A stretch of DNA of 64,000 nt from Mariannaea sp. PMI_226 (lineage: Eukaryota > Ascomycota > Sordariomycetes > Hypocreales > Nectriaceae). Both the position numbers and the translations under genes were made by a program. Below are positions 22,207 through 51,070 of the stretch, in pieces; the first letter of the stretch is position 1; each line of letters begins with the position of its first letter. Below the pieces are notes generated by a model. The model saw nothing but the letters and a program-made list of their open reading frames with translations, did not search any database and was not told where the DNA came from. The DNA lies in the NCBI GenBank assembly GCA_024336345.1, contig JANFOG010000009.1, positions 1,922,001 through 1,986,000 on the forward strand, in the 5' to 3' direction.

Positions 22207-24873
22207 ATATCACTTATAATGATTTCTTAAATAATAATTTTTTTATATAAATAGAAAAAAATTAAAGATAATATAATAAAATTAGAATAAAATTAGAATA
22301 AAGAGACAGGCTATAAGTAGCTAGGTATAGAGAAATAGGTACTAGTAGCTACATTTTAAGATTAAAGCTTATTAAGGGTCCTAAGTAATATTTTATTAAA
22401 TATTTGGTCAGGAGAAAACCCCACGCCCCAAAACCATCCATCTACATAGGTCTAGATGCGAAAGAATGTTATGCAAAATAGTTACGACAGGTAGCCCAGA
22501 ACAGCCACACCATAAATCTAGAAAGAGAAGGAAATTAGCTAAACAAATTATAGGAAATGAACCACTTAATTAAATGGAAGCAAAAACCATAAGTCATATA
22601 AAAAGTCGAAAAGTTAGGGCAAGAATAAGATATATAAAATAGTATGAAGATAACTTGTCCGCTATGTTTCGCAATTCTTTTATAAGGCCTATAGCTAGAT
22701 ATACAAGCCAATAAAATTGTAATAAGTAAAGTGAAAAGTGCATTATGTAATGTAAGCAGCATGTACTAAAGAAGTGAATTTCGTCCCCAACACACTAGCC
22801 GTACTGCTAAACACTGAGACCAAAATCACCATAATGCCATTTATTATACTAATAGATAATCAAGTGGACCGGACTATGGCTTTGGGGGTTAATTGAATCT
22901 AATTTAAAACATCGCTCAGCTTGGGTTAAGAAAAAATTAAAGTGAACGGCCTATGTAGTTATCATTAGCACCAACTTAATACCAGGGGACAAGTTCAGGG
23001 CGTATTCTGACAGACTGCATTATACAGGCTTGCTATAGCACATCTGCGTCAACGAATGCCACACAGCCATCATGGACATCAGCGACCGAGCCAGGCCAGG
23101 GGAGCTCTAGGGGCAACTCCGGCATGAATGCCCCATCATCTTGCTGACCGCCATGCTGCGGATCGTGCCGGAAGACTGGCTCTGTGAAGAGATGCTCGCC
23201 GCGACGGTGATGACGACGATGCTGCGAGACCGCACCAGCAAGGCAAACTGCACTGACCCCTTCCTAAGCACAGCTAATTCCTGAAATTCGGCTGCAGTAT
23301 CCAATAAATAAGACTTAATGAGACTCTCGGCTGGATACTTTGCAGCTGAGATCATCGGGGCCTAGAGCTCTTTCGCACAGCTATACTATCTAGTCAACCA
23401 AGACCAGTGATAGACTTGAAATATGTTATCCCCAGTGTCTAATGTCAGGCAGGTCCCGAACAGTCTGAGTGTTGAGGCTAATCTGCAGAATACCAGCCAC
23501 ACTCGTTTACACAAATGAATCAGAGTTCGACTTTTAAACACAAGGTTCTCCCCAATTATCGAGAGCATTGAGTGGTTAGGCACAACGAATCATGACGTGA
23601 CACTCAATGGGCGGTGGCAGGAAAGCGTGGGACGAACAGCACAGCCCGGCATTGATTTTTCCAAACTAAGCAAGTAATGAGTGGGAACATCCAAATCCAA
23701 TTGAACTCATCGTTTTAAAATGTAACAAGAGCGAAGTATAATTTATTTCTTACTACGCAATCGGCCGATACGGAATGATAATGAGACCCACAATGATTGG
23801 ACTTTGGAGCAGTGTCTTCGAGCAGTTGGCTGATTATACCAAAGCTATCCTATACAAAAGCTTAGAGCTTCAAGTTATGTAGCTAATGGTCAACTAGTGT
23901 CTGCTTCCTGTGCGAACCAACTGCATATGTAGGTCCTTGTTGTCACGTTGCTGTAAAAAAATGCAAGTTACCGAATTTGAACAAAGGATTGAAGCTTTCA
24001 TGGACGAAGGTCTTGTTGTCGCAGAGGAGCCGAAGATCAGAGTAGTCGCCAGTATCGAAAAGCTTTGTTCGTGTGATTGAGATAAACCAGTGTTTTTGAT
24101 GAAGATTTTAGAGGTGACGCACTCGCTGAGTTATTTCCTACATTCCTCTGCGTGTTCCTTTGTATTGAGGTTGAATTTAGGAACTATACTAAAAAGTTTT
24201 TAACATTATGTCCTGCTTATCAACTCTTGCTCGGTATGTAACCATTGCTGGCGTAATCTTTGTCTACGGGCATCCATATGAGCGGGTGTTAGTTGAAGAT
24301 CAGCGAAAGGTTCGGTGGATTGAATGCTTTTGCGGTCCCCAGGATAAGCCAAAATTGTTAGGATTGATAGAATGCCTTGGCTATTGGCAAAACGTCATTG
24401 AGTTCCATTTTTGCTAAGCACAGGATAGTTAGCAAGGGTTAGATTCCATGTGCCGGTATTGGTATTCGCCTTGATTATAACATCATTGGTTATGGACTGG
24501 TTGGTCCGAGTATCGGGCGTGTCGGAGCATGTCGGAGCATATCGCGGCGTCTATGAGGATGGCGGGATAGAAAAAGTAGCCAACAGGCACCTGTTGGCCG
24601 GGATAGATTTTGGGGTGATCGCGTTGGGAAAGTACATGGCCGCTGCTCGGCCAAGCTCGAACATAGCGCGTTGATGTTGAATCAATGAGGAGTAAGGCAA
24701 CAATACTGCAGTAGAAGATAGTCATGGGTCCAAGCATAGGCAGTCTATAGGAATGGGAAACCTAAAGATAAAACTAAAGATGGAGAGTCCTAGGAGCCTT
24801 CTCTGAAGTCTCTATCCTTCATCTGTTCCTTCTAGCTGTCTGCACAAGTGTGTCCTTCTCTAATAGCCTTTGG
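22207..24873. other. Intergenic, partly AT-rich, no gene
   Basis: 22190-22400 and 22500-22760 are AT-rich and carry only low-complexity frames. 23.0-24.8 kb has normal composition but no frame with domain, signal peptide or splice support. Confidence 0.45.
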
Positions 24874-35985: not shown

Positions 35986-38043
35986 ATGACCGAATGGCCT
36001 CGTTTCCTAAAGCCCTATATATACGAATTGTGCCATGTTGCCACATTGATATGTTTGCCCGATTTGAGTAAACTGCATGCTCAACAGACAACCAACTCAG
36101 ACGCTCTGCTTTGCATCCTTCTCAGCTCGCTTGAACATATTACAACCCGAGCCCGAGGCTCACTTAAGGAAGGAAGACTAAATATCTTTAACCAGCACCA
36201 TCTCAACTCATTCATTATTGGTCGCTCATCGCAAAAGCCTATCCTTCACAATCTGAGAGAGGATACCTACAGAAAGTACGGGAGGGTTCTCCAACACTTG
36301 TTGTGCTATGTGTTTCGTCTTGCGTGGCAGAAAACGGGACCAAGATTGCACTACCGGCTTACCGATGGGCAGGAAATAGCGATGATGGAGGCGGTCCATA
36401 CAGCATCAGAGCTAGACCAGAGCAGTGGCGATGGGCTCAGTCCGGATCAGACTGAAGACCTCATTAAGCGACTTGATGACAAGTGTCTTATGTTCATAGT
36501 CTCACTCCTAGACCACAAGCTGTACAGCGACATTTACGATAGCATTGTGGTGAGCTTCCTTGCAGCAATGGGTATCCGACCAGCTTCAACATCCAGCAGT
36601 GAGCAGAAATTATATGATGCTGTTGATTTTACTCCCAAATTATCGGCACTTATTAAGATGGGTCAACTCCTTATTGCTAAGAGGGCACTACTTGCAGTTA
36701 GGCTCGATGAAGTCGACTTCCCAGCTCAGGCTTTGGAGGACATGCAAGATCGGTTTATAACGAAGGACTCGAGGTCACCAATCAGCTGGTCGTTAAAGCT
36801 TCGTGCCTATAGTAAAGCTATTAAGGATAATACAACGAGTCTTGGTTACATCGACTGGTCAGATGACAATGAAAACCTGAGCTACAAGAAGATGCAGTTC
36901 TCCATAACAGGACTCCGACATCTTATTACCACAGAAGTTAAGGCTGCTCAAAGCCAGTTGGCTGACCTTCTCCTCATACCCCCTAATACTGAAAGGGAGG
37001 ACATTATACCTAATATTAGCTTACGGTCATTGTTAGATGATCCATCTGAAAGTAGATCAGACTGGAACTTCACACATCATCCACAAAATGAAGTCCTCCA
37101 TGGACATCAGAGATGGATTCTCAATCGAATACTCAAGGAAGAGTTTCTTCGAAATGACTTTTTTGAGAATGAAAAAATAGCAAAATGGAGACTGCAAGTT
37201 GTTGGTAGGTATCTATCTACTGTTAATACTTTTCTTGAGCGACTTCTCCTTCTTATTCACCTTACAGGGGGTCAGCCAGCACGTGGAACAGAGTTATTAT
37301 GTATTCAGCACTCTAACTCAAGGGATAGGTCGGGCGGACGTCGCAATATCTTCATAGAAAATGGATTGGTGGGCTTTGTGACTTACTATCACAAAGGGTA
37401 TAGTATTACTGGTACTACCAAGATCATACATCGATATCTACCTAGTGAGGTGGGGGAACTTCTAGTTTACTATATTTGGCTTGTGGTTCCATTCCTCGAT
37501 CAGTTGTCTCGATTAGCAAAGATCTCAGGTTTCGGAAGAGGGATAACGCCATATCTATGGGGTGAATTTTGCATCCCGCCGATCTTCTTAGCCTGGGATA
37601 AGAAGGAGCCCACCACGTCATGCCCCAAGACAGCTGACAAGATCGCTCGAAGAGAGAAGAAGAAAAAGTCTCGGGCACTCAGGAGATTACAAGAAACTGC
37701 GAAGCCTAACATATCTAATAATTCATGGCCAAGCACACAATTGTCCGACATTTTATGCCGGGCATTCAAGCTTTCTCTTGGGACAGAGACGAGTATCCAG
37801 CTGTGGAGGCATGCGGCTATTGCTATTTCACGCCGACATCTGCAGCAGGCAAAGTTCAAGCGGGACTTTATTGAAGCAGTATCTTGGGCATGGAATGACG
37901 AGATGGCAGCGCACTCAACTAAATTAGCAGGTCTAACCTATGCACGAGGGCTTGAGGAGGCGCCTGGACATATTGCTGGAGCAAAGGCTGAATATCGACG
38001 TATTTGTCGTGAGTGGCATGGGTGGCTTGGATTTGGTAGATAA
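35986..38043 (+). CDS. OrsD-like transposon protein with tyrosine-recombinase signature (685 aa)
   Basis: This is one uninterrupted 685-codon frame in otherwise mutated surroundings. The N-terminal segment (MTEWPRFLKPYIYEL) and the block GGQPARGTELL ... GLVGFVTYYHKGYSITGTTK are familiar from fungal OrsD/DUF3505 proteins, often seen near RecQ-like helicases in repeats. Reading for recombinase residues gives R433 in QPARGTE, K470 in YYHKGY, a box-II-like SIQLWRHAAIAISRRHL with Q605xxR608-H609, H643 in AAHSTK and Y652 in LTYARG. That is the R-K-H/QxxR-H-Y order and spacing of tyrosine recombinases (box II compares with the usual HxLRH, the last part with GHSS...Y). The first His of box II is replaced by Gln. 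Function as a Crypton-like integrase is inference. Its 5' zinc-finger part is decayed, and a dispersed repeat follows 3'. Confidence 0.75.
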   Translation: MTEWPRFLKPYIYELCHVATLICLPDLSKLHAQQTTNSDALLCILLSSLEHITTRARGSLKEGRLNIFNQHHLNSFIIGRSSQKPILHNLREDTYRKYGRVLQHLLCYVFRLAWQKTGPRLHYRLTDGQEIAMMEAVHTASELDQSSGDGLSPDQTEDLIKRLDDKCLMFIVSLLDHKLYSDIYDSIVVSFLAAMGIRPASTSSSEQKLYDAVDFTPKLSALIKMGQLLIAKRALLAVRLDEVDFPAQALEDMQDRFITKDSRSPISWSLKLRAYSKAIKDNTTSLGYIDWSDDNENLSYKKMQFSITGLRHLITTEVKAAQSQLADLLLIPPNTEREDIIPNISLRSLLDDPSESRSDWNFTHHPQNEVLHGHQRWILNRILKEEFLRNDFFENEKIAKWRLQVVGRYLSTVNTFLERLLLLIHLTGGQPARGTELLCIQHSNSRDRSGGRRNIFIENGLVGFVTYYHKGYSITGTTKIIHRYLPSEVGELLVYYIWLVVPFLDQLSRLAKISGFGRGITPYLWGEFCIPPIFLAWDKKEPTTSCPKTADKIARREKKKKSRALRRLQETAKPNISNNSWPSTQLSDILCRAFKLSLGTETSIQLWRHAAIAISRRHLQQAKFKRDFIEAVSWAWNDEMAAHSTKLAGLTYARGLEEAPGHIAGAKAEYRRICREWHGWLGFGR

Positions 38044-38390: not shown

Positions 38391-38876
38391 ACTTACCACA
38401 CCCTACTAATTAAATAAACCAATATAATTAAATAAAGAATTTAAAAACCTATTATTTAATCTTTCTCTCCTTCTTTCCACCCCCCCCCTATAATATATTA
38501 TTTTTCCTTTTTTTTTTACATTATTATCTCTCCTCTACCCTATAAAAATAATCATTTCCCTTTAAAATAAAATATTACCTAACCCACATTACTAATCTTC
38601 AATATAGTCTTATTTTAAAATAGTAATATATTTATTTATAACCCTCTATTATACCTCTAAACCAACCCTTAGCTATTATTAAACTTATTAAATTGAAAAT
38701 AGACTTAAATGCCTTATTTAATAAATAAGAATAATTATTTAAAATCATTAGGCCACCTAAGCCTCCTTCTCTATCATTTACCAAAATTAAATTACTTCAA
38801 AAATAAGCCAAATTATATTATTTTACTATTACTAAACTGCCTATTAATATTATTAACTTTTCTTAATTATATAATA
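38391..38876. other. AT-rich pre-insertion sequence left of the retroelement
   Basis: This is strongly AT-rich sequence with frequent TTATTA and ATTTAA words, a C run near 38480 and a T run near 38508. It carries no gene. It ends with ATATAATA (38869-38876), which is repeated directly after the right terminal repeat at 51071-51078. Confidence 0.6.
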
Positions 38877-39038
38877 TGTCTTTTTCAGATTTATAATATC
38901 TATTTTTGTTATTTATTTACGAATTTTCCAGCTGTAAAGGCTTGGATACCTATCATTCTTGGACCACAGCAGCTCCGGTTTTGGGCTGGTTGTGTTGTTT
39001 TGTTGTGTTGTTTTTAGCCATTTCCTCGCCTAAACAAA
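38877..39038 (+). repeat. Left terminal direct repeat (LTR-like, 162 bp)
   Basis: It starts TGTCTTTTTCAGATTTATAA and ends CTCGCCTAAACAAA. It differs from the right copy at only a handful of sites, mostly C/T and A/G. TTGGAGG follows, a possible but unproven primer-binding site. Confidence 0.85.
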
Positions 39039-40230
39039 TTGGAGGTTATGGTGGGGGGAGAAAAGGGTTTTTGTTGTATTGGAAAGAAAATCGACATTTG
39101 AGCCGATTGGTCGCCGAACACCCGGCTTTTTCGTCCTTGAAGGCATCACGGCAAGCCAACAGCAAGGAAACCATTTGATCAAACGGTTGCCCTTATGCAC
39201 TTCTTAGCTGCACCTGCGAACCTAGATATTGAGGTTATTGGGGCGTGAGTGTTGTGAAAGAAGAAGAGCAAGTTCTTGAGGACGATTTCTCAAGCATCAG
39301 AAGTGCGGCCGACAGATTACCAGAAATCCTTCCAAGAGGCAGCTGACCATTTGATCAAATGGTCTATTAGCTTCTTAGGGATTCTCAAGGCCAGCTACGT
39401 CTTTGGTGCTTACACAAGGGAAGTGGTGGCGAAAAAAGCAAAGAGAGCCGATCACGAGTGTGAAAGGCAGGGGTTGGAGACGGCATTATGGAAGTGGCTT
39501 GCGAATAGTGGCTACCGTAATACCTAGGATTCTTCTTCCACCACGATCCCAGGGGAAAGCATCCGATCGAAAGGTTCCTTTGCTCTTCTACTGCCTTCTA
39601 GATCAACATATAGCTGAAAAGCTTGTGTGGAGTCAAAAACATGAGGAAGATAGTGGTGTCTATGTGTGTACAGATAGCACAGACTGATGTGCATATATCC
39701 TCAAGTAGCTAAGGATATTGTATGAAGTAATAATGGGTCTCGCCCAACTAGTTATTAGAATGTATATAGCCAATACATCTCGTCGTAGATCGATCGCTAA
39801 AATACCTTATGTGCGATCTCGCGATGCATCCCCAAGCTTCAAGCAGTCTGCTAAGAGAGCTTGAGTGTGCAGAAAGTCTTCCAAACCATTCGATTAAATG
39901 CTTAGGATTGAGATTGATGAAAATTTGAAGTTATTGTTGATTGTGTTAATCCTTTTGTGGTTGCTCACCAAGGACAATATAGTGACGATATTTGCAATAG
40001 GACTCGCGGCGTGGGTGAAGTATAAAGACCAAGAGACTCATCGATAAGAATAGGAAGAAGAAGGACAAATAACAGCTTAATTTTCAGAAGACCTTAGAAA
40101 GACAATCTCTTTATCTTCTGTTGTGTTTTCTCCTTCTTTTTAGCTCTCCAGCTCTTAGAGTCCTTTATCTTAAGCTCTTCTTACAATATCTCGACCTTCT
40201 ACTAAGTGTTAACCATCCAATCAAATCATT

Positions 40231-41460
40231 ATGGGAGATATTATTTAGTCTGATCTGACTGACATCTCTGAAGTCAGAGATAATGAAAGCACCCATAGGA
40301 AATTGGTCACATTTGACGATCTGTCCTTGCTCCTTAAAGGGATCTTGAAAGGCAATATTGGCAGGCGTCCTTCGCCTACTATTGGTCTCTTAAGCAAGTT
40401 TGACGGCACCGATGTCACCCGCTTCCTCAGACGATACGATCATTATATAGAAGATGGAGATGTCTTTAAGGAAAAACGCTATGAAGTCTTTGAAGACTAT
40501 ATAGAGGGATCCATTAGAGAAGAAGTTAGACGCATTACTGAAGGACTTGATTGGGAGACTGCTTAAGCAAGACTGAAGCAGACTTTCATGATCTATGACA
40601 CTAAGCAGATCTAATCCTATGGAGACCAGCTTTGCATTATGAATATGGACCGATTTGAGCTCGACTATGCCAAGATCGTGCATTGGTTGGCCAACTATAT
40701 ATATGTTTGCAAGAAGGTTGATCCAATCGGATGGAGAGGATCTGTTTTAAACGCCAAAGCTATCTTTAAGGCTATGCTAATGATGATCTAAGAGACCTTG
40801 CTGTATGAGAATCTGGGGTTAACTCCCAACCAACTGTGTGAGAAAGGATATGAATCCCTTCATAATATAGTCAGTAGCTTTGTTTATAGATGAATGCTAT
40901 TGTATATACAATCTTGTGGAACGCTTGGTGTTCCAGATTATATTAGGAAGGAAAGTTCTTATATAACATTCCAACTAAGCACCCTTATTATCCCAAAGAG
41001 ATAGACTTCTCCAGCTCCTTAGTCAATTTTGAAAAAGGAAAAGCCTGTTAAATTGGATAATGCTTAAAGAATTGATGATTTGATTAAGGGATTTAAAGAA
41101 ATGAAGATTAACGCCCTCCAGCATGAGGAGAAAACTACAGGAATTTTGAAAGCTCTATTGGATAGGATGGAAGCTAAGACGCAGTCTTCCTTCTATACCC
41201 AGTCCAATTCATTTGATTAGATGAGATAGCTTGATGATATTTATATTAACGCAGTTGGTGGCTTTAGCTATAACTGTTGGTATTGTGGCAAGCCAGGGCA
41301 TAGACCCAACATTTGCTATAAGCTTAGGGATGACCAAACCGATGGTTATAGTGATTATGATTTTGGTAGCCAGTTTGTTTAATATGGAAGACAGGAGACT
41401 ATTCTCCCGCCTTCCCTTATTTATCGATTTTAGAAGATAAGTTGTATTTGAAGACTTTTG
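40231..41460 (+). pseudogene. gag-like gene with CCHC zinc knuckle
   Basis: The frame begins at the ATG at 40231 (MGDII), directly after a palindrome copy at 40212-40229. A capsid-like helical region follows (FDGTDVTRFLRRYDHYIEDG, then a REEVRRITEGLDWETA segment). At 41275-41316 a CCHC knuckle reads CWYCGKPGHRPNICYKL (C-x2-C-x4-H-x4-C), the nucleic-acid-binding motif of retroelement Gag. At least eight in-frame TAG/TAA/TGA codons interrupt it. Family knowledge: Gag packages element RNA in cytoplasmic particles. Confidence 0.8.
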
Positions 41461-44400
41461 GTGTTTTGGGCTGAGAGATTTCCTAGTTCTTTGGCTTGTA
41501 TTATAGCCAAAAGGATGAAGGAAAGGAAATCAGCTATTGGATCTTGGGAAGCTACCCAGGAAGAAAGAGCTTATATTGATGAGTTTCTTAAAAGGAACCC
41601 AAGTTCTCCTCATAAGTTGAGACCCATAGTTGGATTTGAGGAAAAGAGAACACCTCTCCCAAGGGATAACCCAATAACTGAAGAAGTTATTAATATAAAT
41701 ATTATTATTATCAATAACCCAAATGAAGAGGAAAAACCATTTAATTAGATAATTAGCACTAACCACATTATGGTGAACGCCTCCAAAGACCAGGATATAT
41801 TGATGGGTGGTACTAAGGGGAGCTATGTAGCGGAGAAGAACCCTTCTTGACGATCTATGAGGAGTGACGACACTCAGACTTAAGGAAAAGCGACTATTTC
41901 TGATGGTGAAGAATAGGGTCAGGAGCTTATCCTTAAGCTGACCAAAGAGTTCCTCCAGAAGAAGTTTGGGGTGATTGGCGAAGACCTTTGCCATCTGAAC
42001 CCTAAGCTTGGAAGATATCTAGCCAACGGTCTTTCTGATGTAGTTGAGGGAGTTAGTAATAAGAGATAGATCGACCCGGACCTAGAAGTAGGACGAAAGA
42101 GAAAGCATGCCCGGATTAACACAGTTGCTCTTGAAGTCCCGACTTTAAATAATGACTACTATAATGACCTATTACGGTTGAGTGGTCTCTGCAATGTCGT
42201 AACTTTTGGAGAAGCTGCAGAATGCACTCTTAAAAAGAAGGATGAAGTTCTTGGCTTTAGTGATTACCTTATCACTGCAGAAGGTAATGTCGAACTTATT
42301 AAAGGAAATGGACAATTAGTGGACTTAAAACCATCTAATTAAATAATTGTGGCCACTACTGTAGGAGCTATGGTTGTGCCGGATGGAAAAGTTCTTTCCT
42401 ACTGTCAAGAGCTGCCGAGGATCCAGGTCAGACTGAATGATCCAGAAGGACCAACTCTCTAAGCGCTTATTAATATAGGGTCAGAAGGGAACATCATTTC
42501 TAAAGCTCTTCTGAAGAAATGTGGTATATCTTACTCTCCTGCCGATGCTAGTACCATGACTTACTCCAATAATTGGGTGCAGATGCTTGGGGAGGTAGAA
42601 GTGAGATTGTTTCTTGGAAATATTTGGATCTCTCAGAGGATATATATGGCTCCTGCTGGCCAAATCCTTATAGAGTTTATTTTGGGGATGCCTATTGTTA
42701 GATCGACAAGGGTATCTTTTGATTATATGACCAGGAATAGAATAATGCTGCTTAGGTGCCAATTGGGTACTGTGAGAATCATTACTCCAGCTGCTGGGAA
42801 TATTCGCTAGGAAATGCCTGAGATGGGTTAAGTTGAACCTAAATGCTCGCATCTTAAGGTCAATTCTGTTATTATATTATCTGAGGAACCTAATTTATTG
42901 GGGTTATTGGAATATAATGATGAGGTGCATTTGATCGCACCTTTGGATGAGGAAGAAGGCATGGGGCTCTTGAGATAAGTGGCTGAATATTATGTTAAGG
43001 AATATAGGGTGGCTCTTGATGAGGCATAAAGAGAAAGAGCTGCCCTGAAGAAACGACCGAAGTTGGGTAGGAAGGTTGTTAATGTGTATATTATGTATAA
43101 GAAGAAAGGAGTTAAGATTTACCCTAGGGATGATGTTCCATCGGATGGTTCTATCCCTAAAGGAGATCCCTTTTGGAGAGATAAAAAGTGGAAGGAAGTT
43201 TAAGGACTTCTTTAGGAAGATTCTAACTATTCTAACCATATTACGCCTAAGTTTTCGATTATTGAGAGAGGATTAAGGATTTATGGTAAGAGGTTGAAAG
43301 GGCTATCCGATTAAGTGGAAGGAACACTCTTTGAGGAAGAGAAAAAGATCTATCTTTAGATTCTTTATAATAGAGAGGTAGCTTTATTTTGGGAATTTGA
43401 GGAATGTGGGATGCTTGACCCGATAGTTGCTCTATTATAAGTTATTTGAGTTATTAAGTATAAAGTGTGGCAAGTAGGAAGCATTCCTCTTCCACAGGGA
43501 CTGCTGGAACTAGCTACTAAGATTCTGAGATCACAGATGGAGAAGAAAAGACTGGAGGAAGGCCATACTTCCTATAGGAACCTGTGGTTCCTAGTGGCTA
43601 AGAAGAATGGAGACTATCGACTGATTAATTTAGCAACTCAATATAACTAGCATACTATTAGGGATATATTAAGTTCTATAGGAGCTGATGAATTTTCAGC
43701 TGACTTTGCGATATATTCCCTTATATCTCTTTTGGACTTCTACTCAAAATACGATCAAGTCCCCCTAGATGAGAAGAGTAGAGATTTGACCACATTTAAC
43801 ACTCCAATTGGCCTCCTCAGAATGTGCACCCTGCCTCAAGGGGCGACTAACTTAGTGGCCTAGTTTATTAGGATTATTACCAAAATCCTATTTAAATTAA
43901 TCCCTGATGTTTGCTGACCTTTTGTGGATAATATTGCTATTAAGGGACCGAAGACAATCTATAATAATGATGAAATTATGCTGGGAGTCCGCCGATATGT
44001 CCTTAAATACTTAATCAATATTGATAAGGTTTTGGTTAATATAGAGCTTTCTGATTGCACAATCTCTAGAGCCAAGTCAAAATTCTATTAGCAATCTGCT
44101 ATTATCATTGGATATCTATGTGGCATACATGGCAGGTCTCCAGAGGAAGGCAAGATCCTAAAGATCCAGGATTGGAAGCTCTACACTGATGTCTCTGAGG
44201 TATGGGCTTTTCTTGGTCTCATGGGATATTATAGGCAATGGATTAAATCCTTTGCCTGGTTGGCTAGTGCTCTAACCATCCTCCTAAGGAAAGGATAGAA
44301 TTGGAAGTGGGAAAAAGAGCAACAAGATATAATGGATACTCTTAAGGCTTATATTATGAAACCTCCTATTCTCATTACCCTAGATTGTTTAGAAGGGTAT

Positions 44401-46200
44401 GAACCTATTATCTTGATGGTTGATGTTAGCAATAGAGGATGGGGGTGTGGTCTTATGTAGCTACATAAGGGGAAAAGACATCCTGTTTGATTTGAGTTAG
44501 GCGTCTGGATCAAGGCAGAGATAAACTACAATCCGATAAAGAAGAAGTGCAGAGCGGTCTTATATACACTTAGAAGACTTAGAGGATTCCTTTATAATGT
44601 TTATTTCATCTTGGAAACTAACTCCCTAATCTTAGCACACCAACTAAAAGGGAAAGCAAATGATATTCCAGGCGCCCTTATCATTAGGTGGCTTAGCTAT
44701 ATTATGCTTTTTGATTTCACTATTGTTTATATACCCAAAAAGAAGAACCCTATGGCCGATACCTTATTATGAAAAAGCAAAGGACCATTTAATTAAATAG
44801 ATGCAGAAGGTGAGGGAGATATGGATGACTTCATTAATACACAATTGAATATGATCACCCTCAACAATGCTGTCTCCATGAAGCCGCTGCTGCGCTCAGG
44901 ATATTCAGGAACCTCAATATCAATTGCCCATTTCCTTTAGACACAGGAGGTGCCCAATGACCTAAATAACCATCAAGCAAGTAGATTTAGGAAGATGGCC
45001 CTTAAATATTTGGTTTAAGACTCTTAGCTGTGGAGGCATTAGGCAAATCTAGTTGCCGAACCTGCTTTTGTTATAGATAATTCTAAAGCCAGAAAGAAGA
45101 TTGTCAGATTGGTTCATGAAGATAGTGGTCATAAGGGACGAGAGGTTACCTACATCCTTATTAATAAACAATACTATTGGAAAGGATTGTGGAATGATAT
45201 TAAGGAAGCTATTATAGCTTATACCGTCTGCCAAAAGCACGCCCCCTGGAGACCAAAAGAAATGGCTATCCTAATTGCTCCTATACTTCCTATAAAAAAA
45301 GTTCACTTTAATGCTTAATATCTTCCAAATGATCGAAAGATAAAGTATCTTATAGAGGCAAGATGTGATTTTATTGGCTATTTAGAAGCTCGACCTTTTG
45401 CTGCCTTAAACTATAAGAATATAAAGGATTTTGTTCTTTTTGTGGTATTTTGATATGGAGTTATTGTTATTGCTATTCTAGATAATGGAAGAGAGAACCA
45501 GAAAGACCTAAAGTAAGTCCTAGAAGATATAGGCATTGCTATCACCTTTATATCACCTTATAACCCAAAGTCAAATGGTTTTATAGAGTCTGGACATCAG
45601 TCTCTTATTAATTTCTTTAAGAAGTACCCTGACGGGCCTGGAATAAGGTGGTCTAGCAAGCTTGAGAGAGCTTTGTTGGCAGATAGAGCATCTATTAGAG
45701 CTTCTTACAGTTATTTTCCATTCTTTTTAATATATGGTTGGGAGCCTATTTTACCTTTGGAAGTCAATCTTCCTACCTGGAGACTTATAGACTGGGATTC
45801 TATTAGAACTCATGACGATCTATTGGAGGCACAACTTAGGATTCTAGAACGCAAGGATGATAATCTAGAGGAAGTAAGGATCAAAATCATAGAATTCAGA
45901 AAGGCTCTCTTAGAGAGGATTGATAATACAAACACTTATAGACTCTGACTTTATCCCCTTTAGCTAGAAGACCTCGTCTTGAAATTTGACCATTAGAAAC
46001 TGATCGATCTATTAAGGAATACCAAAATAAAACCAAAATAGATTGGTCTATACTGGATTCTAGCTAGAGTTTATAATAGCTCAATATTTAAGTTGGAAAC
46101 ACTTAATGGAATTGCTCTCTTCGGAATTATATATAGTGACTATCTTAAGAAATTCATTAAGGATGACTCTAGATGGTGAATTAATGAACTAATTATAAAG
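41460..46200 (+). pseudogene. pol-like polyprotein: protease, RT, RNase H, integrase (Ty3 order)
   Basis: The protease region at about 42420-42790 has ALINIGSEGNIISKALL (from a D-S-G-type motif, with the Asp changed) and IEFILGMPIV. The RT region (about 43460-44300) has LWFLVAKKNGDYRLI, LRMCTLPQGATN, the active-site box PFVDNIAIKGP (a YVDD derivative, one Asp mutated) and AFLGLMGYYRQWIKSFA. RNase H and connection follow at about 44380-44770 (INYNPIKKKCRAVLYTLRRL, then IVYIPKKKNPMADTLL). Integrase spans about 45080-45950, with an HHCC zinc domain (HEDSGHKG ... TVCQKH) and the DD-E core (RCDFIGYLE, ILDNGREN, IESGHQSLINFF). A C-terminal segment resembling the post-integrase domain follows to 46190. 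More than twenty stops, mainly at apparent Gln codons, make it inactive. Confidence 0.85.
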
Positions 46201-47021
46201 CTGATTGCCCAAAGATATAGAGGATTATTTAATTAAATGGTCTCTTACTTCTCTAAGCGCCAATTTCAAAAACCCACAATTAATAATAATGAAAAAGAGG
46301 AAAACCACTAAGACTCCAGGACACATTCTGGTAAACCATTGGAGACTCCAAAGAAACTTAAAATCAGACTATTGTATATCCTAGAGGAATTTAGAGCATA
46401 GTATAGAGCAATTCCAATTACTTAAAGTTATTTTATAATAATAACCACTTAGCTTTCTTTTGGTTATTGTTAGGGGAGGGTTTTGATATAAATAAGGGAA
46501 AACCCCAACCCTATTTAGAAAATTTTTAAAGAATTGAAAAGAATACTTAAGAATCTTAAAGAATATATAAGAATATCTTAAAATGAGTAAAAAGTTTGCT
46601 AAAATCTAGAAAAATGGCCCGAAAATTAAGGAGTGTTGAATAAGGAGGCGACCGCCTTACTATTATTACATTAAGCATTCCACATAAATGATAACCACAA
46701 AAGAAGAAGAACTGACTTAATTTTTAAAATAAGGACCATTTAATTAAATATTATCACTACCCCTATCTCCGCCTTGCGATCAAATGCCAATATAAGCTGC
46801 GAAAAGACTGCCCTAATTGCCACTATCTAGGCAGATTGCACTTAAGGAAATACAAATCCACAAGCCACCTCCTTATTGCATACCAATAGTGCTCATTTAA
46901 AAGCTAATTGTTTTAACCATTTATTACCCTTAAAGGATAGAAGCTTATAAGTAATTTAAAGAGCTAATTTAGGGTGAAGGACATCAGAAGGAATATCTTT
47001 ATCTAAAATATAAGTAGAGTG

Positions 47022-47660
47022 ATGACCAACAAGAGGACGATTTCGAGGACCAAATTCTCAAGGACTAGCAGATTGATATTCCGGAAAGATGATCTAATTG
47101 CATTTAGTGTATCCATGCTAGATGCAGTTGGAGCACTTATTGTTTATAAACCTAGGAAGAGAACAATAAATAGTAAAGGGAGCTAGGATATGCTCTTAAT
47201 TAATTATGATTATAGTGGTGTATAATTGGATGCATTTAGAATAGCAGATTGGATTAGATTGACCAAAAAAAGAAACCAGAAGAGCTTTGAGATATTCTGG
47301 ATAGGAAGAAAGGCAAGAGAAAAATTAACCGGCTGGGTGGGCATGTTCTGCAGCAATGTAGATAGAGCTCAGCTTTATCCTATTTAGTATGATGAGACCA
47401 TTGGTAAGGACCCGATCTAGCTTGCTAATCAATTGGAAGAATTGCATAATAGTGGATTTAGGAGGCGCGTTTTTGGGCCCTTGACGAAAGGCAAGCTTAA
47501 TATATATCGGTCAACTAAGGCGATTAAGGGTGAGGTAGCTATAAATCTAGATTTCGAGACTCTTATGGATCTAAATACTATTTGATTAGATGGTTCCACT
47601 TATGATGAGGTATGGGGAGGCAACTTACCAGCTTTTGCTAAGGACTTTCAATAAAGTTCT
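47022..47660 (+). pseudogene. Unrecognised ORF downstream of integrase
   Basis: The frame starts at the ATG at 47022 and includes FRKDDLIAFSVSMLDAVGAL, RNQKSFEIFWIGRKAREKL, TGWVGMFCSNVDRAQLYPI and NLDFETLMDLN, with several TAG/TGA codons. It is basic at the N-terminus. I recognise no domain. It lies between the pol end and the peptidase region in the same orientation, so it is probably an additional element gene. Confidence 0.4.
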
Positions 47661-48449
47661 AAGGAGAAATGTGGTATCCATTATGGTTGTTCCATAATAA
47701 AAAGGTCTTATATATTAGATCATTAGTATGTAGAGTGGACTTAGCCTTAAGATAAATATTAAGGAGATTTTTTTAAAATTATAATAATAAAAAAGCCCGA
47801 AATGAGTCAAACTTCCCAAAGATGTCAGCTTCAGACAAGGGCATAGATTGAGACCTCTCTATAATAATGCCTAATAGGAGGAAGCAAAAGAAATGATATT
47901 AAAAGGGAGAAGAAGAGGCAAGAAAAGAATAAGGAAGAAGAGAAAGGCAGCTCCAAAGGCATCCAATATAAGGGATTAGGGGCACAAACTATAGTTAGGA
48001 TAACCACTATAAATCACGGTCGAAGGCGAGCAAACTGATCACAAAGAATATCAAACAACTCCTTATCACTCACTTATTTCTATATAAGCAAATTACCCCT
48101 CACGAGGATATTTTAAGATCCAGTTTGCTAGAGTGTTTTCCTCTTTGATTTACCCTAATTATATATCGCAAATCGCGCTCTACTCATCTTCCTTAGCCGA
48201 CAAAACAATCCTTAAGCAGCAAACCATTTAATCAAATAGCTAGCTACCCAAGCATTTAGTTTTCTTTTTCTCTTCCCCTTTTAAAATCTTGCTCTTATAC
48301 TTATAATTATTAATCCCTCTAGCATACCACCTATCTTCATTGCCCCACCTATTTAGTTCTTCTTCCATTATTTTAAACATAATATCTTTATTACAAGCGA
48401 TATTATAAATTACTTATTGGTTCTTTGTGAAGGTGGATTCAATCAAATT

Positions 48450-49480
48450 CATTTAAATATGTATTTATGGAGAAGGGGGAGGTAAGAGTTTTCTAACTGC
48501 AAATGAGGATATTATTACTATAGACCTCAGAGGGATTTATAAATACTAACTTGCTCAGTTCTAAGCTCGAATAGATTGGTCTTATTGGGCTAATAATAAC
48601 AAAATCCATCTTTCTATTAATACTAAAGGAGATATCTCTTTTGCCTTGCGCTATATTAAATCTCGAGCTCCTTTTTAAAATGGGATCATTAATTGGAAGG
48701 ATTGGAAAGCATATTGTAACGATCTCTGGCAGATGTTCCAAGAACTTCAAGATGGCGGATGGGCGATGAATTTTCAGCTCACATCTTTCCTCATTATGAC
48801 CATATATAGTATTGACAATATTATTATTATTGATCAAGATGTAATATATATCAAATCTTCTAAGGTGATTAAAAATACCAAAGGGATTGCCAAAAGGAAT
48901 TAATCAAATGCTTTACTCCCTTTAAGCTATAAAATCACTATTTATAATAACCTCACCTTCGGATATCCATCTCTTGCTGCCCTAAAAGCTAAGATGTTCA
49001 ATAAGTGTCTGTTTACTAGCTATATCAATTTTGATTAGAACTACTGGACCTACTTTATATTTAATAGAAAGCTTGCACACCTATATTTTTATAACATCTT
49101 GAGAGACGGGAGGGAGAGATGAGCCAAGACTACTTGCCTAGTTTTCCGAGAGTTCCTCACAAAAGCTAGTCTGCCATTTGACTTTAGCTTCCTGGGCATG
49201 CCAGTTATACCCCAGACTGACGGTTGGAGCTGTGGTTATCTTTATGCCTTTATCTTGAGCTAGCATTTGTATTGTCTTATTGGTCTAAGTTATCTATAGC
49301 TACTCTAAGCTATTAGCTTGCAATTCCTATAAATAGATAATAATGTTGAGCCAGTCTTTGGCACTCCTGAGATATATCTTTAAGACTGGACCTTGGCCCC
49401 TTGGAAGGCAGCCGGGCAAGCTATAAGACCTATAATAAAATGTATTCATATTCTTATCCTGATGGTCATTCTTAATGAAC
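48450..49480 (+). pseudogene. Ulp1/C48-like cysteine peptidase region
   Basis: A stop-interrupted frame reads GKSFLTANEDIITIDLRGIY, then IINWKDWKAYCNDLWQMFQE. Later NYWTYFIFNRKLAHLYFYNI resembles the HW...I......I..YDS core of Ulp1-type peptidases. QTDGWSCGYLYAFIL at 49213-49257 matches the Q-x-D-x-x-S/N-C-G active-site Cys box. The spacing and order of the two blocks fit a C48 fold; the catalytic His is not certain. Ulp1-type proteases process SUMO-like modifiers and are known in some DNA transposons and plant elements. About fifteen TAG/TAA codons interrupt the frame. Confidence 0.55.
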
Positions 49481-49869
49481 TTAGCATCTAAGACCAAACC
49501 TTCCTTATTGATAGAATTGAGATTAAGTTATGCTAGTATTAGACTATTAGGTATACTCCTTGGAGCGGGAATAATTCGATCAAAAGGTCTGAGCTATATA
49601 TTGACCTTAGGGGATTCCAATATCTTGAGTGGGAAAGTAGAGGTGCCACAAAAAGTTATTATATTAATAGGATCATTTTAAGAACTAAGCTAAATAATTA
49701 TTCTTGAGTTTGACATTCTTGGCCAGTTGTTAATATCCAATTCCCTTAGGTCTTAAGGGAAGTTATTGATAGGTGGACTGGCGAGGGGTTTAGGACTGAT
49801 AATGGTTTTACTCCCTTGCTCTCCTTGGTTTAGCTGAGCATCTTTATTAATGTTAGCCCAGGATTTGTC

Positions 49870-50560
49870 CGTTAGACTTAGGTCAACCAGCTTAGAGACA
49901 GTCTGTTCAACCCAGAAGTTGGTATGGAAGATGGTCCACCTAGGTCTCCCAGAAGCTGGGGACAGTTTGTAAGATTCTTAGCCAGTGAATTGATGGGCAA
50001 GGAAGCTAGTGACGCCAATGTCCAGCGAATCTTTGAGCAATCTGGTCTGACCACAATGCAAGTGGCTTCACCTATTGTCATAAATACTAGCAGTGATGAT
50101 GTTGAAGTTGATGAGGATATTGAGAGTGTCTTCTACCTTAACATCTCTCTAATGGAAGGGATGTAGGAGCTTTGAGGCGCTATGCTGGTCGAAATGAATA
50201 ATGACAGGATCATCCGACATTGTAAAAGAGCCGATCAATTCCCTCCCAAACATGCTTCTGCTGTTATGACTAGTGAAGTTGCTGATAGATTGCGGCTCCC
50301 TATTATTCCTGATAGAGTCATGCAGTACAGCCCGTCTACTAGCACCTATGTGTCTTATATCCCGAATGGTATGGTGAGTATAGATTAGTGGAGGGAGATT
50401 TATAGCAAGATAGATAGGGCTTTTGGCAAAGGAAAGACTGTGGAGGACCAAAAGTCTAAAAGGAAATAGCGATGGTTGGCAAGAGAAGCTCGTAGGGAGT
50501 AGTGGAAGCTTGTGGGTTTGGAGGAGGATATCTTGATGACGGGGAGGTGTTTTCTTATTC
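49870..50560 (+). pseudogene. Unrecognised 3'-terminal ORF of the retroelement
   Basis: A nearly open frame includes MEDGPPRSPRSWGQFVRFLA, ELMGKEASDANVQRIFEQSG, an acidic DDVEVDEDIESVFYLN, RADQFPPKHASAVMTSEVAD and IDRAFGKGKTVEDQKSKRK. It has only a few stops, so it is the least damaged extra frame of the element. The middle is acidic and the end basic. No domain is recognised. A DNA-binding role at the palindromes is an untested idea. Confidence 0.4.
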
Positions 50561-50774
50561 TGTTTGATGGAAGCATTTGATCAGATGGTCTACTATTGGG
50601 GAGGTATATGATAGCTGGGGAGGCTTCTTTTCTATTGTTTTAGTTATACGATACCTGCGTACTTGAGGGCAAGTGTGGTGTCGCATGGGGAGGCGTGTGT
50701 TGAGGTCACGTGACCTTCCTGTTTAGGAAATTGGGTGGAGGATTTTAATTGGTCAGGATAGATACATACTTCCG

Positions 50775-50830
50775 GAGGTGGATATAAAAACCCGGATGTC
50801 CACATCTTTTGATAGACATGAACTTCAGCA
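50775..50830 (+). promoter_or_regulatory. TATA-like promoter just upstream of the right terminal repeat
   Basis: GGTGGATATAAAAACCCGG followed after about 40 bp by GAACTTCAGCATCGTCAATT looks like a fungal core promoter. It lies about 125 bp before the right terminal repeat and is absent before the left one. Confidence 0.35.
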
Positions 50831-50908
50831 TCGTCAATTCACATTATTTTTGGGCCAATTGGGTTTAGTTCTTTTGTAAAGCATTTGATCAGATGCTCCT
50901 GATCATAA

Positions 50909-51070
50909 TGTCTTTTTTAGATTTGTGATATCTATTTTTGTTATTTATTTACGAATTTTCCAGCCGTAAAGGCTTGGACACCTATCATTCTTGGACCACA
51001 GCAGCTCCGGTTTTGGGCTGGTTGTGTTGTTTTGTTGTGTTGTTTTCAGCCATTTCCTCGCCCAAACAAA
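50909..51070 (+). repeat. Right terminal direct repeat (LTR-like, 162 bp)
   Basis: It starts TGTCTTTTTTAGATTTGTGA and ends CTCGCCCAAACAAA, then ATATAATATT follows. It is near-identical to 38877-39038. Confidence 0.85.

What the first reader, a model, noticed from the sequence alone, without database searches (positions are those of the whole stretch)
39170..50897. An 18-bp palindrome is scattered through a whole 12-kb retroelement
Seen: ACCATTTGATCAAATGGT, perfect at 39346, recurs with small changes at 17 or more sites from just inside the left terminal repeat to just before the right one. I noticed no copy elsewhere in the window. Spacing is irregular and the flanks of copies are unrelated, so these are not tandem or segmental duplications. 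Known: VANDAL elements of plants carry short repeated motifs bound by an element-encoded anti-silencing protein, and some fungal factors bind inverted half-sites. Inference: the motif may be a binding site for an element-encoded or host protein (anti-silencing, transcription, packaging or nuclear positioning), or an RNA hairpin series. I know of no described fungal LTR element with such an array.
Basis: partly seen in the sequence, partly recalled or inferred. Interest (0 to 1): 0.88.

Follow-up and report, generated by a model that had tools for sequence, protein, structure and literature searches.

The report
Palindrome arrays shared by unrelated transposons
In this fungal genome the same 18-letter mirror-image DNA word is scattered through unrelated kinds of jumping genes and its best copies are almost absent elsewhere, as if these genetic parasites had each come to carry the docking site of one DNA-binding protein that is still unidentified.

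Summary
The observation largely holds. The 12.2-kb element (38876-51070) is a RIP-damaged Ty3 retrotransposon with 12 palindrome copies at up to 3 mismatches, RIP changes allowed, against 0.2 in shuffles. "No copy elsewhere in the window" is wrong: 22561 lies in an LTR of a second family. Genome-wide there are 17 exact copies and 147 within 3 mismatches, against 10 for the reversed pattern. Of the 42 sites with 0-1 mismatch, 40 fall in Ty3 family A (this element), Ty3 family B and its LTR, a Fot/pogo DNA transposon C with an intact ORF, and a contig-end LINE-like family E; one more lies in a Copia locus. A, B and C carry arrays. Two sister pogo families of nearly equal length lack the six C sites, and C departs from both exactly there (identity 0.43-0.45 against 0.63-0.64), so the sites arose by concentrated substitution. 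Half-sites do not covary significantly, which disfavours an RNA hairpin. Best reading: a double-stranded DNA site for a symmetric protein whose binding helps the elements (transcription or anti-silencing). The protein is unknown. VANDAL/VANC is the nearest analogue; sharing across element classes and extension into coding sequence differ from it.

The parts
38876..39038 (+). 5' LTR of Ty3 family A element
   Evidence: 96% identical to 50908-51070; 32 of 37 genome matches of a query covering LTR plus internal start cover the LTR part only
50908..51070 (+). 3' LTR of the element
39170..39187 (.). palindrome, 1 mismatch
39346..39363 (.). palindrome, exact
39885..39902 (.). palindrome site, 2 mismatches (RIP-tolerant)
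40212..40229 (.). weak palindrome site, 4 mismatches
41208..41225 (.). weak site, 5 mismatches, in gag reading frame
   Evidence: near chance on its own
41736..41753 (.). palindrome site, 2 mismatches, in gag-pol frame
42330..42347 (.). palindrome site, 2 mismatches; homologous position also a site in family B
44784..44801 (.). palindrome site, 1 mismatch, just after the RNase H piece; homologous position also a site in family B
46224..46241 (.). palindrome site, 1 mismatch
46735..46752 (.). palindrome site, 1 mismatch
47577..47594 (.). palindrome site, 1 mismatch, in ORF2 region
48223..48240 (.). palindrome site, 1 mismatch
48895..48912 (.). weak site, 4 mismatches
49571..49588 (.). weak site, 4 mismatches
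50572..50589 (.). palindrome site, 2 mismatches
50880..50897 (.). palindrome site, 3 mismatches, next to the 3' LTR; sites of the same pattern lie beside family-A LTR matches on C5, C9, C11 and C20
43501..44280 (+). reverse transcriptase region (read with X at stops)
   Evidence: Pfam RVT_1 5.1e-9
44491..44772 (+). RNase H region
   Evidence: Pfam RT_RNaseH 6.6e-6
45043..45948 (+). integrase region (H2C2 and core pieces)
   Evidence: Pfam Integrase_H2C2 1e-13; rve_3 4e-4, below its cut-off
46965..47700 (+). ORF2 region, degenerate, unknown function
   Evidence: no Pfam hit; short tblastx match to family B
48433..50580 (+). ORF3 region, degenerate; C48-peptidase-like stretch near 49215 by eye only
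   Evidence: no Pfam hit, no convincing PDB hit; homologous region in family B
22397..22798 (-). LTR copy of Ty3 family B
22561..22578 (.). palindrome (RIP form, 2 mismatches) inside the family B LTR copy

Best explanation
The palindrome is a double-stranded DNA binding site for a symmetric (probably homodimeric) sequence-specific protein. Mobile elements of several classes in this fungus have acquired and multiplied the site because occupancy helps them, most likely by activating or de-silencing their chromatin over the whole element. Shown: arrays in families A, B and C; single sites in the B LTR, in a LINE-like 5' region and in one Copia locus; the best sites (0-1 mismatch) almost confined to mobile elements; concentrated substitution at the sites in C relative to two sister families; no significant covariation of the half-sites. 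Inferred: that a protein binds, that it is a dimer, that binding benefits the elements, and that the protein is host-encoded (slightly favoured, because four element types share the site) rather than encoded by one element and pirated by others.
For: Enrichment in A (3 copies) and B against shuffles. Of 42 sites with 0-1 mismatch, 40 lie in families A-E; of 31 sites of ASCATYYGATCRRATGST, 30 lie in mobile elements (control pattern 0) and 1 is unassigned. C shows no tblastx similarity to A or B, has DDE_1 4.8e-29, and has two sisters of nearly equal length without sites at up to 4 mismatches. C departs from both sisters at the six sites (0.426 and 0.454, random means 0.639 and 0.631; 0 and 6 of 5000 random sets as low) while the sisters agree about normally there (0.583 against 0.644). 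One C site changed the peptide: PFDQ occurs in C alone among 34 aligned transposases. Coding sites in C and the Copia locus use all three frames. Half-sites do not covary (p 0.16). Two sites are shared at homologous positions by A and B, which are 31-45% identical over pol.
Against: No binding protein was identified. Among 41 homology-selected B LTR copies the palindrome is no better conserved than the rest (rank 111 of 366 windows by non-transition changes, 124 by identity), as expected for dead copies but no support. Three of the six C sites have 4 mismatches. Four short blastn matches (25-69 bp) join B and the C3 copy of C, around sites; the flanks were not separated from the sites. E has one site in each of the 4 copies read (10 matches in the genome) and the Copia piece is single-copy. 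Residues over two C sites are common in database relatives (HLIRC 23 of 34, AIDQM 18 of 34), several of them Fusarium, so part of the array may be older than C; their DNA could not be read. Of the 147 sites within 3 mismatches only 49 were listed, so most 2-3-mismatch sites were not placed. Benefit to the element is inferred only from gain.
Confidence: 0.5

Rival explanations
1. VANC-like system: a protein encoded by the Ty3 lineage itself (ORF2 or ORF3 of A/B) binds the palindrome and removes silencing; the pogo, LINE-like and Copia elements have evolved the site to exploit it.
For: A and B both carry the array plus homologous extra coding regions beyond pol. Precedent: VANC6 motifs also occur in AT9TSD1, unrelated to VANDAL, some copies of which are de-repressed (passage read in PMC5735166).
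Against: ORF2 and ORF3 have no Pfam hit; ORF3 has no convincing PDB hit (3 listed, best E 0.43) and no database hit; ORF2 was searched in Pfam only. The A and B copies read here are degraded, while C has an intact ORF.
Confidence: 0.27
2. The palindrome is the site of a host surveillance repressor, such as a CENP-B-like, pogo-derived protein as in S. pombe, which silences these elements.
For: S. pombe CENP-B homologues sit on Tf2 LTRs and silence them (passages read in PMC4981269); the genome holds many pogo-type transposase sequences (63 matches), some with open frames.
Against: Elements should lose, not gain, a repressor's site; C shows concentrated change towards six sites.
Confidence: 0.12
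3. The site is a pogo transposase recognition sequence that the retroelements carry by coincidence or capture.
For: In C the two best sites sit 69 and 91 bp from the ends, flanking the ORF.
Against: Sister pogo families with 46-bp inverted repeats and 57-58% tblastx identity have no site at up to 4 mismatches; four more C sites are internal.
Confidence: 0.04
4. RNA hairpin series (packaging, export or RNA stability).
For: A 7-bp stem with a GATC loop is possible in principle; counting G-U, pairing is slightly above shuffle (p 0.06).
Against: No significant Watson-Crick covariation overall (p 0.16) or within A, B or C; a DNA transposon shares the motif; E copies carry uncompensated single changes.
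Confidence: 0.04
5. Chance or AT-rich composition.
For: RIP drives sites towards ATTTAATTAAAT-like words; at 4-5 mismatches many matches are chance (C10 copy: 31 seen against 10.25 expected at up to 4).
Confidence: 0.01

Closest known systems
VANDAL transposons and VANC anti-silencing proteins (Arabidopsis)
   Same: Many copies of one short motif inside an element; the motif can also occur in an unrelated element (AT9TSD1); the target sites evolve quickly (passages read)
   Different: VANDAL motifs sit in tandem repeats of noncoding DNA and are thought to spread by repeat formation; here they are an 18-bp palindrome, dispersed, in coding and noncoding DNA, gained by substitution in C, and shared by Ty3, pogo, LINE-like and Copia sequences. 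No VANC homologue found (Pfam only for ORF2).
S. pombe Tf2 LTR elements with CENP-B homologues (Abp1, Cbh1, Cbh2)
   Same: One host DNA-binding protein family acts on a fungal LTR element (passages read)
   Different: Acts at LTRs as a repressor; no dispersed internal palindrome array described in the passages seen.
MoIsw2 palindromic motifs in Magnaporthe transposons
   Same: ChIP-seq palindromic motifs overlapping fungal transposons (passages read in PMC11481914)
   Different: The motif letters were not visible to me, so identity is untested; [quoted passage not shown] the paper is about a host remodeller.
Fungal DNA transposons encoding TET/JBP dioxygenases
   Same: Possible element-carried anti-silencing in fungi (PMC12730594, search listing only)
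   Different: An enzyme gene, not a cis-array; no such gene was looked for here.
Drosophila gypsy Su(Hw) site cluster (recalled, no call)
   Same: A retrotransposon carrying a cluster of sites for a host protein
   Different: One compact cluster in one element, not dispersed and not shared across classes.

Membership tests
Ty3/Gypsy LTR retrotransposon (families A and B) | LTRs plus RT, RNase H and integrase in pol | tested here: met
   A: LTR pair, RVT_1, RT_RNaseH, Integrase_H2C2. B: homologous pol by tblastx, same-strand LTR pairs 13,348 and 13,351 bp apart; B domains not scanned on their own
Fot/pogo DNA transposon (family C) | DDE_1 transposase, HTH DNA-binding domain, terminal inverted repeats | tested here: met
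   559-aa open frame with DDE_1, HTH_psq, HTH_Tnp_Tc5; 45-bp inverted ends; a named Fot5 transposase among its relatives. Target duplication not tested
VANDAL/VANC-type anti-silencing system | Multiple short motifs within the element | tested here: met
VANDAL/VANC-type anti-silencing system | Motifs in noncoding tandem repeats | tested here: not met
   Dispersed, unrelated flanks, partly coding
VANDAL/VANC-type anti-silencing system | Element encodes a VANC-family protein | tested here: inconclusive
   ORF2/ORF3 without Pfam hits in degraded copies; ORF3 without database hits
VANDAL/VANC-type anti-silencing system | Loss of silencing marks at motif-bearing copies when the factor is expressed | not testable with these tools
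   needs experiment
CENP-B-type host surveillance | Host pogo-derived protein binds the element | not testable with these tools
   candidate transposase sequences exist; binding unknown
LINE (family E) | Reverse transcriptase domain | tested here: inconclusive
   Only the first 446 aa read; weak zinc finger, no RT domain in that part; open frames of 969, 1068 and 1073 aa at three copies
Ty1/Copia (locus F) | Integrase core and RVT_2 | tested here: met
   RVT_2 8.6e-19, SH3_retrovirus 1.9e-15; rve 2.9e-5, below its cut-off

The most novel reading that the evidence does not exclude
One trans-acting protein serves as a common licence for mobile DNA in this fungus: unrelated elements (Ty3, pogo, LINE-like, Copia) have convergently evolved sites, and in three families arrays, of the same 18-bp palindrome, even inside coding sequence, to recruit it and escape silencing: a community-wide anti-silencing signal.
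Probability: 0.3. Interest if true: 0.92.

Novelty: new variant of a known kind. Interest (0 to 1): 0.74.

Why it matters
Sequence-specific binding arrays in transposons are known from single systems such as VANDAL/VANC. The same array in unrelated element classes of one genome, gained by substitution even at the cost of a protein change, would mean that mobile elements converge on one host or pirated factor. It gives a concrete probe sequence for fishing out that factor and for testing how fungal elements evade silencing.

Tried and rejected
Chance and composition were rejected by shuffles and the reversed-pattern control. A peptide-level repeat (PFDQM) was considered because several sites in the A gag-pol frame read that way; rejected since C and the Copia locus also use other frames (HLIRC; NRSIG and TIRSNG, where the central stop triplet reads CGA) and since many sites are noncoding. 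Transposase end-recognition was rejected from the sister pogo families. The 400-bp repeat was first read as a MITE from its inverted ends, then corrected to the LTR of family B. Conservation of the palindrome among B LTR copies was tested and not found. In A, transversions at sites against the rest between the window and C10 copies were 4 of 252 against about 487 of 11,868 (p 0.05): suggestive only. A less RIP-damaged B copy on C19 was sought; the stretch fetched held no B sequence. Searches for the transposase in viral contigs gave no relative; in prokaryote contigs one fungal-looking contig without sites at up to 3 mismatches. Eight viral-contig loci with one exact palindrome each had no further site at up to 3 mismatches. 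The host species was not identified: the window gene used for naming looks like a mobile-element gene. Literature: the six papers holding ATTTGATCAAAT were not about this (listing); in the listings (1 to 15 rows shown each) I saw no fungal element with such an array. Open-licence papers only; passages, not whole texts, were read in five of them.
Full report
What is in the window. The stretch 38876-51070 is one LTR element: 163-bp repeats, 96% alike, at 38876-39038 and 50908-51070, with reverse transcriptase (RVT_1 5.1e-9), RNase H (6.6e-6) and integrase zinc-binding (1e-13) pieces. It is a Ty3/Gypsy element riddled with stops. Differences between this copy and the C24 copy are almost purely C-T/G-A changes (15.8% transitions against 0.04% transversions outside the sites), the pattern of RIP. 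I call it family A. Beyond pol lie two further degraded coding regions, ORF2 (46965-47700) and ORF3 (48433-50580), with no Pfam hit; ORF3 also has no convincing PDB hit and no database relative.

The palindrome. Plain matching gives 7 sites within 3 mismatches in the window against 0.01 expected. Allowing the four CpA/TpG positions to be RIP-changed gives 12 sites at up to 3 mismatches in family A against 0.2 in shuffles, and 15 and 16 in the C24 and C10 copies against 0.65 and 1.05. Weak sites at 4-5 mismatches blend into chance, most of all in the 15% GC C10 copy (31 seen, 10.25 expected at up to 4).

Not private to this element. Genome-wide there are 17 exact palindromes and 147 within 3 mismatches; the same pattern read backwards gives 10. 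The tool lists only the first 49 places; these include every site with 0-1 mismatch, 42 in all. I placed those by reading their surroundings or by the coordinates of family hits: 40 lie in five groups. (i) Family A. (ii) Family B, a different Ty3 family (31-45% protein identity to A over pol, DNA mostly unalignable), with 18 sites at up to 3 mismatches in 11.8 kb against 0.65 expected. (iii) A ~400-bp repeat, the commonest carrier (14 of the 17 exact sites, including diverged copies). It is the LTR of B: a copy stands immediately upstream of the B stretch on C1, another about 1.15 kb beyond the last B sequence held on C19, in matching orientation, and two same-strand pairs stand 13,348 and 13,351 bp apart. 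(iv) Family C, an 1868-bp Fot/pogo transposon with 45-bp inverted ends and an open 559-aa transposase frame. (v) Family E, a LINE-like family mostly near contig ends (so probably subtelomeric), with open frames up to 1073 aa, whose site lies about 160 bp before the ATG in the copy read. The remaining two are a single-copy Copia locus (RVT_2 8.6e-19) and one unassigned place outside any long frame (L076). A two-mismatch site, L069, is also unassigned. A second pattern without RIP letters, ASCATYYGATCRRATGST, gave 31 sites (control 0): 30 in mobile elements by position and 1 unassigned. Most exact sites are LTR copies descended from one ancestral site, so independent origins are far fewer than sites.

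Gain by substitution. Family C has six sites (1, 2, 3 and three times 4 mismatches), against 0.85 expected at up to 4 mismatches in the whole 4.5-kb stretch. It has no tblastx similarity to A or B; against B the C3 copy of C shows four short blastn matches of 25-69 bp around sites. Two other pogo families in the same genome, L077 and L078, are 1868 and 1863 bp long, align to C without gaps at five of the six sites (one extra base in L077 at the sixth), and have no site at up to 4 mismatches. At the six sites C is 0.426 and 0.454 identical to them, against 0.639 and 0.631 for random sets of windows (0 and 6 of 5000 as low), while the sisters agree about normally there (0.583 against 0.644). So substitutions were concentrated on the C lineage at the sites. 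One site altered a peptide: PFDQ appears in C only among 34 aligned transposases. At two other sites the residues are common (HLIRC 23 of 34, AIDQM 18 of 34), so those may be older than C. The C and Copia coding sites use all three frames, and the third-frame ones read CGA where TGA would stop translation.

DNA site, not RNA hairpin. Over 45 sites from A, B, C, E and the Copia locus, A4, A9 and T10 never vary (the sites were chosen by similarity, so this is partly built in), and the half-sites vary independently (Watson-Crick pairing 0.837 against 0.827 shuffled, p 0.16; counting G-U p 0.06). That is what a dimeric protein on double-stranded DNA would give.

Results against my reading. Among 41 homology-selected B LTR copies the palindrome is not better kept than other positions (rank 111 of 366): dead copies drift. 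In A the evidence for preservation is marginal (p 0.05). Families E and the Copia locus show single sites. No binder is known.

How it most likely works. A site that unrelated elements gain is most simply a site that helps them. Positions next to the pogo ORF, in the LINE-like 5' region, in the B LTR and beside the A LTRs fit a role in transcription; the extension of arrays through 12 kb and more of partly coding DNA in A and B, and through the pogo ORF, goes beyond an ordinary promoter and fits chromatin opening, insulation or anti-silencing along the element. Whether the protein is host-made or made by one of the elements (ORF2/ORF3) and pirated is open.

Known relatives. VANDAL/VANC in Arabidopsis is the nearest analogue: I read passages of PMC5735166 and PMC10398659, which describe motifs in noncoding tandem repeats and, in the first, one unrelated element sharing VANC6 motifs. 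S. pombe CENP-B proteins on Tf2 (passages of PMC4981269) show a host protein on fungal LTR elements. MoIsw2 (passages of PMC11481914) has palindromic ChIP motifs overlapping transposons in Magnaporthe; the letters were not visible to me. In the searches named under Tried and rejected I saw no description of this palindrome.

Noticed in passing
window 49195-49260: ORF3 contains a stretch resembling the C48 (Ulp1) peptidase active-site region, by eye only; family B has a homologous stretch. Ulp1 domains are known in Mutator and Ginger1 transposons (passages of PMC2836005). Pfam does not confirm it.
   Followed up: partly
window 35986-38043: 685-aa open frame next to the element; many of its fungal relatives carry an OrsD (PF12013) domain. 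It looks like a mobile-element gene rather than a host gene.
   Followed up: partly
G000 C14:178871-181408 and C8:834898-863822: Family B LTR copies stand between two halves of pogo-type transposase sequences, so family B appears to have inserted into pogo copies.
   Followed up: no
window 38876-51070 and L031/L032: The window copy and the C24 copy differ almost only by transitions (transversions 0.04% outside the sites), so they look like copies of one recent element separated mainly by RIP.
   Followed up: partly
L090: A contig filed under a Frankia alni MAG encodes a fungal-type pogo transposase (56% identity), probably fungal contamination of the bin.
   Followed up: no
L076 1037-1054 (C19:2062136): A one-mismatch palindrome at a place with no repeat similarity among fetched loci; possibly a genuine host site.
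   Followed up: partly
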